Translations under genes and position numbers: made by a program | The notes under the pieces: generated by a model | Told to the model about the DNA's origin: nothing | The model's database searches: none | The model's input: the letters and a program-made list of their open reading frames with translations, nothing else | Part shown: one piece after another, positions 17,420 through 23,242 of the stretch | How positions within the stretch are numbered: the first letter of the stretch is position 1 | Layout: each line of letters starts with the position of its first letter | Assembly: GCF_023806485.1 (NCBI RefSeq) | Contig: NZ_JAMSLR010000015.1 | Span: 1-60,578, forward strand | DNA length: 60,578 nucleotides | Source of the DNA: Thermalbibacter longus | GTDB taxonomy: Bacteria; Chloroflexota; Chloroflexia; Thermomicrobiales; Thermomicrobiaceae | Direction: 5' to 3'

Positions 17420-18928
17420 TTACGACTTGATCGGACCCAACTGGTCCGCGGTCGGCTCTGCTCAGCAGAACCACGATTCGGTGAGGCGTGGCGGTGGAGG
17501 GCGATGCCCACGCCGCGGTGGTTCTGCTGGTATTGCGACTCCCGCAGCCTCGCAGGCGAGCGCCCGCACGGCCGCGAAGGTCGTGTGGCTGCTCCAGCCC
17601 TCACGCGTTGCCTGCTCCACCAGCGTTGCCACCTGTTGCTGCAGGCGATCGACTCGCGGGTCAGGGTGCGTCCAGGTGTAGGTGAAGCTGGCCTCGTCGA
17701 GCGGGCCGATCCACTCGGCGGCGTCCGGCCGGTCGAGCAGCGCCGAACCCGGCGGCACCAGCAGCCGGATCGAGAAGTGTACCGGATCCACATGCTCGAT
17801 CAACCCCTGCTCCTCGATGAAGTCGAGCAGTTCCAGATAGTCCTCGAGCGTGGTCCAGGGGGTAAAGGGAAGCAGAGAGGGGCGCATGGCGATGCCAGCC
17901 TCGTCCAGCACGCGCAGCGCCTCGACGATATCGGCCTTGCGGTGACCCTTGTCGATCTTCTCCAGCACCAGGTCGCTGACCGATTCGACGGCCGAGACGA
18001 CGAAGACGCATCCCAGCCGCCGGAATTCGGGGAAGAGCTCGCGGTGACGCAGGATATGCTCGATCCGGGTCGTGAAGTCGAAGGTGACCTCCGGGAACTC
18101 CTCGTGCAGCGCCTGGCAGATGCGCAGGCTATGCGTGGGACCGTTGAGGAAGTCCGGATCGCCGAAGGTGATGTGGCGCGCTCCCTGGCGTACCTGCCGG
18201 CGGATATCGGCCAGCACCACCTGGCGAGGGATGGCGAAAAAGCGGCCCCGATACAGCGGGACGATCGGGCAGTGCAGGCAGGTATGGTGGCAGCCGCGGG
18301 TTGTCTCGGTATAGCCAGCCGGTACGATACGGCCGTCCATGACCAGGTGGGCGTAGTGGCGCGGCGGCGGCAGATCGGAGCGGTCAGGCTCCGGGAAGTC
18401 GATCCGGGCCAGTGATGGGCCTGCCCGGTGGACACGATCGCTGACGCCGGGGACTGGGCCTGGATCGCCGCGCTCGAGCGCCTGGATCAGGGCCAGTAGC
18501 GGAGCCTCGTACTCGCCGCCGATGACGAAGTCGGCCCACTCGCGCAGCAGGTACTCGGCGTTCAGCCAGGCGTAGAGGCCGTAGAAGCAGAGCAGCGCGT
18601 CCGGGTTCCGGCGCCTAACGCGCGCGGCCAGCTCGACACCGAGCCGGAGCGCGGTGTGCATCGGCACCGAGATGGCGACCAGCCGCGCGGCGGCGATGGC
18701 CGCGTCGTCCGGTGGGGCCACCGCCGCGTCGACGGCGACAGGCCGGTAGCCGGCGCGACGCAGGTAGGCCAGTGGGAAAGCCAGGTTGAGCGGCTGGTGG
18801 CCCAGTTCGTAGCAGGAGAGCAGCAGGATCGCTCCCGGCTCCTTGAGATCCAGCGGAGCTGGCCGAGGTGTCACCCTCGGCAGGCTCTGGCTCTCCGCAT
18901 AGGTGATTGCCGCCGGCAGCGAGGCCAT
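17420..18928 (-). CDS. B12-binding radical SAM selenoprotein with CUAEP tail (TGA read as selenocysteine)
   Basis: A 502-residue protein if TGA at 17464-17462 is decoded as Sec489; a conventional call would stop there at 488 residues. An N-terminal cobalamin-binding-like Rossmann domain (about 30-160; LLLSCYELGHQPLNLAFPLAYLRRAG) precedes the radical SAM core with RGCHHTCLHC, a CxxxCxxC cluster motif at Cys213, Cys217 and Cys220, then FGDPDFLNGP and TTRIEHIL. The C terminus reads RLTESWFC-Sec-AEP followed by ten residues to a TAA stop at 17422-17420. The Cys-Sec-Ala-Glu-Pro tail is the signature of the CUAEP/CCAEP-tail radical SAM (seleno)protein family as I recall it. Its reaction is unknown. 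ATG at 18928 has GGGAG upstream; the upstream extension would overlap the preceding gene. Confidence 0.9.
17423..17461 (-). promoter_or_regulatory. Putative bacterial SECIS element after the Sec UGA
   Basis: Thirteen bases after the UGA a perfect 6-bp stem CGGACC (17448-17443) / GGTCCG (17437-17432) closes a 5-base loop AGTTG with G as its second base. A lower stem CGAC (17454-17451) / GTCG (17426-17423) can extend it across an internal loop. The loop starts 19 bases after the UGA, inside the 16-37 base window usually quoted for bacterial SECIS elements, with the expected G among the first two loop bases. Confidence 0.75.
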
Positions 18929-18998: not shown

Positions 18999-20786
18999 TC
19001 AGACTGGGATGCCGGGGCTGAATTCTTCTTCGGTGATGGCCGCGTCGCCTCCGGAGTATCCGGCCGCGGCACCATCGGCCCGCCAGCAGGCACCCCCGCG
19101 GAGTAGCCCGGTCTCGGGATCGATGAGGATGCCGTTCATCCCGCCGGCTACCTTCGGCACGACCTGCACGGTATGCCCGCGGCGCTCCAGGTCGGCCATC
19201 AGCTCCGGCAGGCGGTCGTACCCGCGCTCCAGCTCCAAAACCGGCCCGCGGTCGAAGAGCCTGGGTGCCTCCATAGCCTCCTGCACGCTCATGCCGAAGT
19301 CGATGACGTTCAGGATCGCTTGCAGGACCGAGCCGAAGATGCGCACCCCGCCAGGAGTGCCGATCGCCAGCAGTGGTTTCCCATCCTTGAGGACGATGGT
19401 GGGCGACATCGAGGAGAGGATGCGCTTGCCGGGAGCGATCGAGTTGGTGCGGCCCGGCGTCGGATCCATCAGCTTCATGCAGTTGTTGAGGAGCATCCCG
19501 GTGCCTGGCACTGTCACCTTCGACCCGAAGGCGCCGTTCAGAGTCTGGGTAGCCGAGACCATGTTCCCTTCGGCGTCCACGGCGCAGCAGTGGGTCGTGC
19601 AGGTGCCCTCACCGTCCGGCGCGATCCCAGCCGCGTACTGCTGCGCTCGCCCCATGTCGATCTGCGCTCGTCGCTCGGCAGCGTAGTCTTTGGAGGTGAG
19701 CCACTCCACCGGCACCTGCACCCGTTCAGGGTCGGCGAGGTAGCGGGCGCGATCGGCAAAGGCGATCTTCATGGTCTCGGCGATCAGATGCACGGTATCA
19801 GGTGTGCCGAAGCCCAGCGTGGGCAGGTCGAACCCTTCCAGGATGTTGAGCATCTGGACGATGTGGACGCCGCCGGAAGAGGCCGGCCCCATCGAGACGA
19901 TCTCATAGCCACGGTACGTGCCGCGCACCGGCTCTCGCTCGTAGACGCGGTAGCGAGCCAGGTCGTCGAGCGTGATCAGCCCGCCGTTGGCTGCCATGTC
20001 GCGCGCGACGACCTGGCCGAGCTGACCTCCGTACAGGTGCCCAGCGCCCTCGGTGCCGACCCGCTCGAGGGTAGCCGCGTACTCGACGCGGCGGAGGACG
20101 GAGCCAGCGGCAGCCGGTCTGCCTCCTGGGAGGAAGATCTCGGCTGAGGCGGGGAAGCGACTCAGCGCGGCCTCGCACAGGCGGATGAAGCCGTGCAGTT
20201 AGGGGCTGACCCAGAAGCCCTGGCGCGCGTAGCGCACCGCCGGCTCCACCACGACGGCGAGTGGGAGACGGCCATAGCGCTCGAGCGCCGTCGTCCAGCC
20301 CAGCAGGCTGCCCGGCGTGGCCACTGCCAGGTACCCGGTGTCGTTCAGGCCGCCCTCGACCTCGTTGTCCAGCGAGCCAGGGATCGGCACGTACATGTCC
20401 TCGCGCGCCGCCAGCGGAACGACGGCATAGTCGTCGATCGTGGTCAGCGTGCCGTCGGCGAGCCGGATGGTGAGGAAGCCGGCCCCGAAGATCGAGACCA
20501 TCATCGGCTCGACGACCGAGAGCGCGAACAGCGTCGCCACCGCCGCGTCGATCGCGTTGCCGCCCCGTATCAGCATCTCGACGCCGGCCAGCGATGCCAG
20601 GGGATGGTTGGAGGTCACCATCCCCAGCGAGGCGACCGCCTCGCGCTTGAGGGTCGGCCTGCCGGTGCCGAAGCCCACTCCCATGATGCCTGATCGCCTC
20701 CCTCCCTCGACCCGAAGCTGCGCCAGCGCACGATACCGCGCCTTCTGGGCGAGAGCAAGATCGCGCAGTGCCTCGGGACGAGTCAT
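18999..20786 (-). pseudogene. Gamma-glutamyltransferase family gene interrupted by one in-frame TAA
   Basis: Read in one frame, 18999-20786 encodes a full-length (about 595-residue) gamma-glutamyltransferase-like protein, interrupted only by TAA at 20201-20199 (codon 196). Upstream part: GMVTSNHPLASLAGVEMLIRGGNAIDAAVA and VVEPMMVSIFGAGF. Downstream part: FLPGGRPAAAGSVLRRVEYAATLERVGTEGAGHLYGGQ, then the autoprocessing and catalytic region TCTTHCCAVDAEGN (nucleophile Thr near codon 397), SATQTLNGAFGSKVTVPGTG and NNCMKLMDP. There is no frameshift. Stop before the catalytic subunit means no active enzyme unless the stop is suppressed or is an assembly error. TAA excludes selenocysteine. Confidence 0.85.
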
Positions 20787-21063
20787 TCGCCGGGACTGGC
20801 CGGGACTGCCGAGCGAGCGCTGATCTGCTCGAGGGGATCGCGTTTGGTAGAGCCGCAGCGATCGCGACGCTGCTGGCCCCGTTCGGCCCTCCCTGGCCCT
20901 GCTCCAGGGCCCTTCCCGCCGAAAACTGCTCCATCCAGTCGCCTGTATCGTTCAGTCCTCATCACAGACCGGTCTTCCGGGCGTGCCATGAGATCGCCTG
21001 GTAGCCGCGGTGGTACGATGGCAGCAGTCGTGGGCAGGTGCATGCGCAAGATGGAGATCGCTG

Positions 21064-22284
21064 ATGGGTGAGGCGACGCGGACTAGGCCATCGAGGCGGG
21101 CACGGGAACTGCCGCCCTCGCCGATCCGAGCGCTCGCGCCGCTCGCCGAGGCGGCGAAGCAGCGAGGCGTGCGCGTGCTTCATCTCAACATCGGCCAGCC
21201 AGACTTGCCGCCACCGCCGTGCGTGCTGGAAGCGCTGGCGGAGGCTCGCCGGCTGCCGCTGGTGTACGCGCCGGCCCGTGGGCTGCCGGAGACCGTCGAC
21301 GCGTGGTGTGCGTACTACCGCCGGCAGGGGATCGAGATCGAGCCGGCGGAAGTGCTGGTCACCTCCGGCGCCAGCGAGGCGCTCTGGCTGGCGCTGCTGG
21401 CGACGACCGACCCCGGCGACGAGGTGCTGGTGCCCGAGCCGTTCTACGCGCCCTACCAGGGGCTACTCGCGGCGGCGGGCCTGCGCCTGGTTCCTGTTCC
21501 GCCCGGCCCGAGCCTCGGGCCGCCCGATCCGGTCGAGCTGAGGGCGAGGGTCACTCCTCGTACCCGGGCTATCCTGCTCTGCAGCCCGGCGAACCCGTCC
21601 GGTGCCGTCTGGGATCGGGCGGCGTTGGCGGCGGCCGGCGAGCTGGCCCGCCAGGCTGGTCTCTATCTCCTCTCCGACGAGACCTACCGGGAGATCGTGT
21701 TCGATGGGCCGCGGGCGACCAGCGTGCTCGAGCTGCCGGGCCTCGAAGAGCACGCCCTGGTGATCGACAGCTTGTCGAAGCGGTTCAACGTCTGCGGTCT
21801 CCGTATCGGTGCCTTGGCGACCCGCAACCGCGCGGTGATGGCAGCGGCGCTGGAGCTGGCCGAGCTTCGGCTGGCGCTGCCGGTCATCGACCAGCTTGCA
21901 GTCACCGGAGCATTGGCTGCCCCGCGCCCCTACGTGGATCAGGTCGTAGCGGCCTACCGTGCCAGGCGCGACGCTGTGCTGGCGGCGCTCGCGGCCGTTC
22001 CGGGGGTCGAGGCCCACCGGCCCGGTGGGGCGTTCTACATCGTGGCACGGCTACCGGTGGACGACGCTGAGCGCTTCGCCGCCTGGCTCCTGGCTGAGTT
22101 CGAGCACCGGGGCGAGACCGTGATGGTCACGCCGATGCGCAGCTTCTACGCCACGCCGGGCGCTGGTCGCGACGAAGTGCGCCTGGCCCTGGTACACGCA
22201 CCGGAGACCCTGGCCCGGGCGGTCGAGATCCTGGCCGCCGGCCTGGCGGCCTACCCCGGGCGCAACAGCCGAACTCATAGCTGA
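21064..22284 (+). CDS. PLP-dependent aminotransferase, class I/II
   Basis: A 406-residue fold-type I aminotransferase. LHLNIGQPDLPPPP opens the family pattern. LVTSGASEALWLALLATTDPGDEVLVPEPFYAPYQG, CSPANPSGAVW, LLSDETYREIVF and SLSKRFNVCGLRIG follow. Lys239 in SLSK is the Schiff-base lysine. A C-terminal RLALVHAPETL block supplies the carboxylate-binding arginine. Similarity is to aspartate/aromatic aminotransferases; substrate not determinable. ATG at 21064 has GGAG upstream and puts the fold at normal length. Confidence 0.92.
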   Translation: MGEATRTRPSRRARELPPSPIRALAPLAEAAKQRGVRVLHLNIGQPDLPPPPCVLEALAEARRLPLVYAPARGLPETVDAWCAYYRRQGIEIEPAEVLVTSGASEALWLALLATTDPGDEVLVPEPFYAPYQGLLAAAGLRLVPVPPGPSLGPPDPVELRARVTPRTRAILLCSPANPSGAVWDRAALAAAGELARQAGLYLLSDETYREIVFDGPRATSVLELPGLEEHALVIDSLSKRFNVCGLRIGALATRNRAVMAAALELAELRLALPVIDQLAVTGALAAPRPYVDQVVAAYRARRDAVLAALAAVPGVEAHRPGGAFYIVARLPVDDAERFAAWLLAEFEHRGETVMVTPMRSFYATPGAGRDEVRLALVHAPETLARAVEILAAGLAAYPGRNSRTHS

Positions 22285-22522
22285 AGGCTATCTCACACCG
22301 TCCGAGAAGGTGGGCTAGATCCTTGTATGGGACTTACGGAACATGATTGATATGCTTCACGTGATCACTCAGGGCGGGTAGCAGGACGAGAAACTAGTTC
22401 GCAGAAATTCTCGTCAAGCCTATCGACCGCCTGCGATGAGCATCAGCATATAATATGTTGCTCGTTAGGCGCGCTCGCATCGCACGCTTGTATGCTGGTG
22501 ATGCAAACTCCAGGACGCAGCC

Positions 22523-23242
22523 ATGGCCGAAACCATCAACATCTATTGCGACGAGAGTTGTCACCTGGAACACGATAGGCAGCCCATCATGGTTCTCGGA
22601 GCGGTGTGGTGCCCGTTGGACAGGACACGCGAGATCGCGCAGCGAATTCGTGAAATCAAGATGCGGCACGGCCTGCCAGCGCATTTCGAGATCAAATGGG
22701 GCAAGGTTTCTCCAGCTCTGAAGCACTTCTACCTCGATGTCCTGGACTATTTCTTTGACGATGACGATCTCCACTTTCGAGCTCTCGTGGCAATGGACAA
22801 GGCTATTCTGCGGCACGATGAGTTTAAGCAAGATCATGATACTTGGTACTATAAGATGTATTTCGATATGCTGAAAGTCCTCTTCGACCCTTCGTTTCGT
22901 TATCGCATCTATCTGGATTACAAGGATACACACGGAAATAAAAAAATAAGGAGACTCCATGATGTTTTATGCAATAATATGTATGACTTTCGGCGTGAAA
23001 TTATCGAGCGCGTCCAGGCAGTCCGGTCGCATGAAGTTGAACAAGTGCAATTGGCTGATCTGCTGACCGGGATCGTGAGCTACGCAAATCGGAAGCTGAC
23101 CAGCAGTTCTGCAAAGATCACCTTGGTTGAGCGGATGCGGGAGCGATCTGGATATAGCCTAACACGCTCTACACTTCTGGCTGAGAAGAAGGTAAATGTA
23201 TTTTGTTGGACGCCGAGGGCGAGCCGTGGTTTCGGAGAATGA
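22523..23242 (+). CDS. DUF3800 family protein
   Basis: A 239-residue protein with the DUF3800 opening INIYCDESCHLEH (Asp10, Glu11), GAVWCPLDRTREIAQRIREIKMRHGLPAHFEIKWGKVS, and the closing VEQVQLADLLTGIVSYANR motif. The acidic residues fit a proposed RNase H-like nuclease fold. DUF3800 genes are frequent in mobile elements and defence islands. Base composition is visibly AT-richer than surrounding genes (AAA, AAT and TAT codons are common), indicating transfer. A TATAAT box lies at 22449-22454. The gene overlaps the next one by 47 bases. Confidence 0.9.
   Translation: MAETINIYCDESCHLEHDRQPIMVLGAVWCPLDRTREIAQRIREIKMRHGLPAHFEIKWGKVSPALKHFYLDVLDYFFDDDDLHFRALVAMDKAILRHDEFKQDHDTWYYKMYFDMLKVLFDPSFRYRIYLDYKDTHGNKKIRRLHDVLCNNMYDFRREIIERVQAVRSHEVEQVQLADLLTGIVSYANRKLTSSSAKITLVERMRERSGYSLTRSTLLAEKKVNVFCWTPRASRGFGE

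What the first reader, a model, noticed from the sequence alone, without database searches (positions are those of the whole stretch)
17420..18928. Hidden selenoprotein: radical SAM enzyme with a CUAEP tail read through TGA
Seen: the minus-strand frame runs without break to TGA at 17464-17462, and the codons next to it spell Cys-(TGA)-Ala-Glu-Pro, then ten residues to TAA at 17422. Known: CUAEP/CCAEP-tail radical SAM proteins (B12-binding, CxxxCxxC) end exactly in this motif. Inferred: selenocysteine at 489, missed by ordinary annotation, which would stop at Cys488.
Basis: partly seen in the sequence, partly recalled or inferred. Interest (0 to 1): 0.92.

Follow-up and report, generated by a model that had tools for sequence, protein, structure and literature searches.

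The report
Radical SAM selenoprotein with Cys-Sec tail

Summary
The minus-strand frame is open to TGA at 17464-17462, then reads AEPTADQLGPIKS to TAA (17422-17420). The product matches all of NCBIfam NF040546, 'CUAEP/CCAEP-tail radical SAM (seleno)protein' (777 bits, cut-off 500). In 80 relatives the codon is TGA in 62 and Cys in 18, and AEP follows in all. A hairpin after the TGA fits the bacterial SECIS model, covaries strongly in TGA members and not in Cys members. The genome has SelA, SelB, tRNA-Sec(UCA) and a Sec-containing SelD. Sec489 is near certain, short of protein data, but the kind is known: NCBI named the family, although a 2026 review of 119 prokaryotic selenoprotein families omits it and no held paper mentions the motif. 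New here is a strong link to an ATP-grasp L-amino-acid ligase: 73 of 75 Chloroflexota genomes with the enzyme carry it, 22 of 226 without do. In the window's genome the ligase lies on another contig, in the YggX/formyltransferase slot that holds this radical SAM gene in other lineages. Closest characterised relative: ArsL (arsinothricin synthesis). The substrate is unknown; an ArsL-like carbon-heteroatom bond-forming role is inferred only.

The parts
17420..18928 (-). Radical SAM selenoprotein gene of the CUAEP/CCAEP-tail family (502 residues with Sec489; start codon uncertain)
   Evidence: NF040546 777 bits over cut-off 500; Pfam Radical_SAM 51 bits; open frame with one TGA
17462..17464 (-). 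In-frame TGA read as selenocysteine 489
   Evidence: TGA in 62 and TGC/TGT in 18 of 80 relatives at this codon, AEP after it in all; Sec machinery in the genome
17432..17448 (-). SECIS-type hairpin: 6-bp stem, loop AGUUG; 19 bases between the TGA and the loop
   Evidence: MFE -10.6 kcal/mol; covariation 65 double-change cells, 0 of 500 shuffles; not conserved in Cys members; fits the bSECIS model quoted in PMC13188914
17465..17467 (-). Cys488, the partner of Sec489 in the vicinal Cys-Sec pair
   Evidence: invariant in 61 aligned proteins
17423..17461 (-). Tail after Sec: AEPTADQLGPIKS
   Evidence: A490, E491, P492 invariant, T493 and Q496 nearly so
17420..17422 (-). True stop codon TAA
18269..18292 (-). 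Radical SAM cluster motif C213-x3-C217-x2-C220
   Evidence: invariant columns C213, C217, C220; Pfam Radical_SAM residues 208-369

Best explanation
The gene encodes a radical SAM enzyme with an N-terminal cobalamin-type (Rossmann-like) domain whose C-terminal tail carries a vicinal Cys488-Sec489 pair. SelB and tRNA-Sec decode the TGA as Sec, directed by a hairpin that begins about 13 bases after it (near certain by comparison; not shown at protein level). Most likely mechanism, inferred: the tail folds back to the active site and the Cys-Sec pair holds a soft atom (arsenic, selenium or sulfur) or a substrate thiol, to which the radical SAM centre attaches a group taken from SAM, as the sister family ArsL does; the resulting amino acid is then joined to another amino acid by the ATP-grasp L-amino-acid ligase that almost always accompanies the gene. 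I give the selenoprotein reading about 0.95, the functional coupling to the ligase about 0.8, and the ArsL-like heteroatom chemistry about 0.35; the 'confidence' below is for the selenoprotein core.
For: Family match over the full length including the tail. 62 TGA / 18 Cys codons at one position, AEP after all. Hairpin: 86.2% of cells paired, 65 cells changed on both sides against 25.2 in shuffles, covariation 0.435 against 0.223, 0 of 500 shuffles as high; slid controls far lower. In Cys members 46.8% paired and no excess covariation. SelA, SelB, tRNA-Sec(UCA), SelD in the genome; SelD itself reads CAG-U-AGK, a second selenoprotein. All 32 TGA-type genomes examined by handle have tRNA-Sec (30) or SelB (the other 2); six Nitrospirota Cys-type genomes have neither above cut-off. 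At least 3 Sec/Cys changes on the tree. Ligase link: 73 of 75 against 22 of 226 Chloroflexota genomes; 44 of 50 genomes across phyla; ligase 49-81% identical across phyla and on either strand next to the gene; in the window's genome at C2:21678-22913 beside YggX and a formyltransferase. ArsL model 323 bits, next family 55. ArsL moves a 3-amino-3-carboxypropyl group to As(III) (PMC8552651). Fold: AprD4 Z 27.4, OxsB 25.9.
Against: No protein or selenium data. The hairpin of the window alone is not exceptional in its 36-base context (z -0.9); the case rests on covariation. One TGA-type genome (G267, 86% complete, 1040 contigs) shows neither tRNA-Sec nor SelB, probably incompleteness. tRNA-Sec is common in the phylum (231 of 301), so its presence alone is weak evidence. 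For the chemistry: the protein is under ArsL's cut-off (323 of 450 bits), no arsenic gene was found among the recurrent neighbours, and four Planctomycetota genomes carry the enzyme without the ligase.
Confidence: 0.95

Rival explanations
1. Same selenoprotein, but the Cys-Sec pair is a redox dyad (as in the C-terminal tails of mammalian thioredoxin reductases, from general knowledge): it reduces the substrate, a disulfide or an auxiliary centre, or protects the enzyme against oxygen, and does not bind a metalloid.
For: A vicinal Cys-Sec pair near the C terminus suits a redox role; most uncharacterised prokaryotic selenoproteins are thought to be redox-active (PMC13188914); an iron-trafficking 'oxidative damage protection' gene (YggX) and an Nfu-like scaffold recur as neighbours.
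Against: The closest characterised relative (ArsL) has a tandem-Cys tail by its model's name and a metalloid substrate. Nothing here tests the redox state.
Confidence: 0.35
2. Same selenoprotein, but Cys488/Sec489 are ligands of a second iron-sulfur cluster or of the cobalt of a cobalamin.
For: Fold matches cobalamin-class radical SAM enzymes (OxsB, TsrM, AprD4); neighbours include an Nfu-like scaffold and YggX; tandem Cys as Fe-S ligands are proposed for Dph2 (PMC11048331).
Confidence: 0.2
3. The TGA is an ordinary stop and the protein ends at Cys488; the downstream AEP is chance or a relic.
For: A naive gene caller ends there; inefficient recoding would also yield some Cys488-ended product.
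Against: 62 TGA genes keep AEP in frame, Cys homologues run through the same position, the hairpin covaries only in TGA genes, and the machinery is present.
Confidence: 0.02

Closest known systems
NCBIfam NF040546, CUAEP/CCAEP-tail radical SAM (seleno)protein
   Same: Full-length match over the curated cut-off, tail motif, Sec or Cys at the position.
   Different: Nothing in sequence; the function of the family is not described in any held paper.
ArsL (NF040542, rSAM_RCCLKC), arsinothricin biosynthesis
   Same: Next best family by far (323 bits over residues 34-440); radical SAM enzyme with a tandem-Cys tail according to the model's name.
   Different: Below ArsL's cut-off of 450; longer C-terminal stretch, CUAEP instead of RCCLKC; no arsQM neighbours seen; an ATP-grasp ligase instead.
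AprD4, OxsB, TsrM (solved cobalamin-class radical SAM enzymes)
   Same: Fold of residues about 27-470: AprD4 Z 27.4 (rmsd 3.8, 413 aligned), OxsB 25.9 (3.8, 429), TsrM 24.5 (3.4, 406).
   Different: 16-19% identity; different substrates; no Cys-Sec tail known to me.
Other radical SAM selenoproteins in the 2026 inventory (TIGR04167 GxxU; TrsS NF045646)
   Same: Radical SAM enzymes with Sec (PMC13188914).
   Different: Other families and other Sec contexts; the CUAEP family is not among the 119 listed.
L-amino-acid ligase BL00235 (PDB 3vot), relative of the partner ligase
   Same: Closest solved structure to the ATP-grasp partner by sequence (126.6 bits).
   Different: Only a homologue; the partner's substrates are unknown.

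Membership tests
NF040546 CUAEP/CCAEP-tail radical SAM (seleno)protein | Score over the curated cut-off, whole model matched | tested here: met
   777.2 bits, cut-off 500, model 1-467 of 468
NF040546 CUAEP/CCAEP-tail radical SAM (seleno)protein | C-terminal C-[CU]-A-E-P tail | tested here: met
   CUAEP at 488-492; invariant in 61 aligned proteins
NF040546 CUAEP/CCAEP-tail radical SAM (seleno)protein | Radical SAM CxxxCxxC motif | tested here: met
   C213, C217, C220 invariant
Bacterial selenoprotein | In-frame TGA aligned with Cys in homologues, conserved flanks on both sides | tested here: met
   62 TGA, 18 Cys, AEP in all
Bacterial selenoprotein | SECIS hairpin: loop 16-37 bases after the TGA, G among the first two loop bases, MFE at most -7.5 kcal/mol | tested here: met
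   19 bases, loop AGUUG, -10.6 kcal/mol; covariation
Bacterial selenoprotein | SelA, SelB, SelD and tRNA-Sec in the genome | tested here: met
Bacterial selenoprotein | Selenium present in the protein | not testable with these tools
   needs mass spectrometry or 75Se label
ArsL (arsinothricin biosynthesis) | Score over NF040542 cut-off of 450 | tested here: not met
   323.1 bits
ArsL (arsinothricin biosynthesis) | RCCLKC tail | tested here: not met
   tail is WFCUAEP
Cobalamin-dependent radical SAM enzymes | B12-binding domain that binds cobalamin | tested here: inconclusive
   Pfam B12-binding 25.6 bits, cut-off 32.1; fold resembles cobalamin-class enzymes, which does not show binding

The most novel reading that the evidence does not exclude
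The CUAEP radical SAM selenoprotein and its ATP-grasp ligase are the core of an undescribed, widespread two-step pathway: the enzyme makes an unusual amino acid by bonding carbon from SAM to a soft atom held by its Cys-Sec pair, and the ligase turns it into a dipeptide or similar small molecule, in Chloroflexota, Nitrospirota, Rokubacteria, Acidobacteriota and others.
Probability: 0.25. Interest if true: 0.82.

Novelty: new member of a known kind. Interest (0 to 1): 0.5.

Why it matters
The gene is a clean case of a selenoprotein whose tail a naive annotation cuts off. The family is named by NCBI but missing from the 2026 inventory of 119 prokaryotic selenoprotein families and from every held paper. 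The near-obligate ligase partner turns an orphan radical SAM family into one with a testable pathway, and the repeated Sec/Cys switches with hairpin decay in Cys lineages offer natural controls for what selenium buys a radical SAM enzyme.

Tried and rejected
Rfam scan and tRNA scan of the window: nothing at threshold. Papers for CUAEP, CCAEP or NF040546: none held; radical SAM with ATP-grasp and selenoprotein: none; the two Haft papers are not held. Local neighbours in the window (split gamma-glutamyltransferase, TPP enzyme, aminotransferase) were rejected as functional partners: they are shared almost only with close relatives. Several 'conserved neighbour' clusters (numbers 1, 2, 6, 7, 8, 18) are antisense or shifted frames of real genes, not genes. 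tRNA-Sec presence as a discriminating test within Chloroflexota was dropped because the background is 77%. A look for an arsenic gene among the recurrent neighbours found none, but not every neighbour was annotated. One solved-structure search was run by mistake on a meaningless 20-residue stretch.

Full report
Observation. The minus-strand frame from ATG 18928 is open to TGA 17464-17462 and continues AEPTADQLGPIKS to TAA 17422-17420. The start is uncertain: the frame is open up to GTG 19093 and many relatives align from about residue 27.

Identity. The 502-residue product scores 777 bits against NCBIfam NF040546 'CUAEP/CCAEP-tail radical SAM (seleno)protein' (cut-off 500), matched over 467 of 468 positions including the tail; the next family is ArsL (323 bits, cut-off 450), and the third only 55 bits. 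Pfam finds Radical_SAM (51 bits) and a sub-threshold B12-binding domain.

Selenocysteine, by homologues. Of 80 relatives from the bacterial genome collection, 62 have TGA and 18 have TGC or TGT at the codon; all keep AEP after it. A few loci are near-duplicates or two copies in one genome (L032/L041), and L049 has one earlier in-frame stop. In 61 aligned proteins E484, W486, F487, C488, C/U489, A490, E491 and P492 are invariant. A quick tree needs at least three Sec/Cys changes (Nitrospirota, Thermogemmatispora, a Ktedonobacteria group with Dictyobacter), which starred branches force.

Selenocysteine, by RNA. A stem of up to seven pairs with an AGUUN loop starts at the 13th base after the TGA; 19 bases separate the TGA from the loop. 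In 55 distinct TGA members 86.2% of cells pair, 6 of 7 pairs show changes on both sides, 65 cells are double changes (shuffled mean 25.2) and the covariation score is 0.435 (shuffled 0.223, 0 of 500 as high); sliding the partners drops it to 0.04-0.18. Some apparent failures (L064, L069, L082, L084) form the same stem with a 4-base loop when read by eye from the sequences. In 18 Cys members pairing is 46.8% and covariation is at shuffled level, though three Thermogemmatispora Cys genes (L036, L040, L047) still keep the five core pairs, as expected of recent loss. The hairpin fits the bSECIS model given in PMC13188914; in the window it folds at -10.6 kcal/mol, though on its own it is not exceptional in a 36-base context (z -0.9).

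Selenocysteine, by machinery. The window's genome (3.63 Mb, 99.9% complete) has SelB, tRNA-Sec with anticodon UCA, SelA and SelD, and SelD itself reads CAG-U-AGK, so it is a second selenoprotein. Of 50 relatives' genomes, 30 of 32 TGA-type and 12 of 18 Cys-type have tRNA-Sec; the two TGA-type exceptions have SelB above cut-off, and the six Cys-type exceptions, all Nitrospirota, have no SelB above cut-off. In a Chloroflexota sample tRNA-Sec is common (231 of 301), so that test is weak there; one fragmented TGA-type genome (G267) has neither marker.

Context. In the window the neighbours (gamma-glutamyltransferase, TPP enzyme, aminotransferase) are shared almost only with close relatives. Elsewhere four kinds recur: an ATP-grasp L-amino-acid ligase, a YggX-type iron trafficking protein, a formyltransferase, and an Nfu-like scaffold or a DUF169 protein (the Nfu-like assignment is by eye). 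The ligase is one group, 49-81% identical to the Nitrospira copy across phyla, on either strand next to the gene. In 301 Chloroflexota genomes the enzyme occurs in 75, the ligase in 95, both in 73 (Fisher p 3e-47, not corrected for kinship); the two exceptions are incomplete genomes (84%). Among 50 genomes from several phyla 44 have the ligase; four of the six without it are Planctomycetota. In the window's genome the ligase is at C2:21678-22913, 59% identical to the query, directly beside YggX and the formyltransferase (YggX translated): the arrangement formyltransferase-YggX-radical SAM-ligase of other lineages, with the radical SAM gene elsewhere.

The closest solved relative of the ligase is L-amino-acid ligase BL00235.

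Structure. The AlphaFold2 model is confident (pLDDT 90.9, pTM 0.90), with the tail at about 62-78. Best solved matches are AprD4, OxsB, MgmA, CysS and TsrM. A shared fold does not show function.

Mechanism. Shown by comparison: Sec at 489 in a vicinal Cys-Sec pair. Inferred: the tail reaches the active site. Of three readings (soft-atom binding as proposed from ArsL, redox dyad, cluster or cobalt ligand) the first and second are nearly equal; I lean to the first because ArsL is the only characterised close family, it too has a tandem-Cys tail by its model's name, and it makes an amino acid (PMC8552651), which would suit a downstream amino-acid ligase. This remains a hypothesis.

Novelty. NCBI has already named the family as a (seleno)protein, so the gene is a new member of a known kind. 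The 2026 inventory of 119 families (PMC13188914) omits it, and no held paper has CUAEP, CCAEP or NF040546; papers outside the held library were not searched. The covarying hairpin, its decay in Cys lineages and the ligase coupling are, as far as I could check, not described.

Noticed in passing
window 18999-20786 (-), TAA at 20201-20199: The gamma-glutamyltransferase gene upstream is split by an in-frame TAA where close relatives such as L021 have one full-length gene; a recent pseudogene or a sequencing error.
   Followed up: partly
L104 6322-8941 (window's genome, contig C2 about 20320-22940): Formyltransferase, YggX and ATP-grasp ligase sit together in the window's genome without the radical SAM gene, which lies between YggX and ligase in other lineages.
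   Followed up: yes
L090 10001-12229: In one Nitrospirae genome the radical SAM gene (Cys form) runs without a stop into a DUF169 gene, where relatives have TAG; a natural fusion or a sequence error.
   Followed up: no
L106 (window's genome, C1:375586-376518): SelD of the same genome has an in-frame TGA in the CAG-U-AGK motif, so this organism has at least two selenoproteins.
   Followed up: partly
L088, L097, L098, L100: Planctomycetota genomes carry the enzyme with DUF169 but without the ligase; a PLP-barrel decarboxylase-like gene and a formylglycine-generating-type gene (by eye) recur nearby.
   Followed up: no
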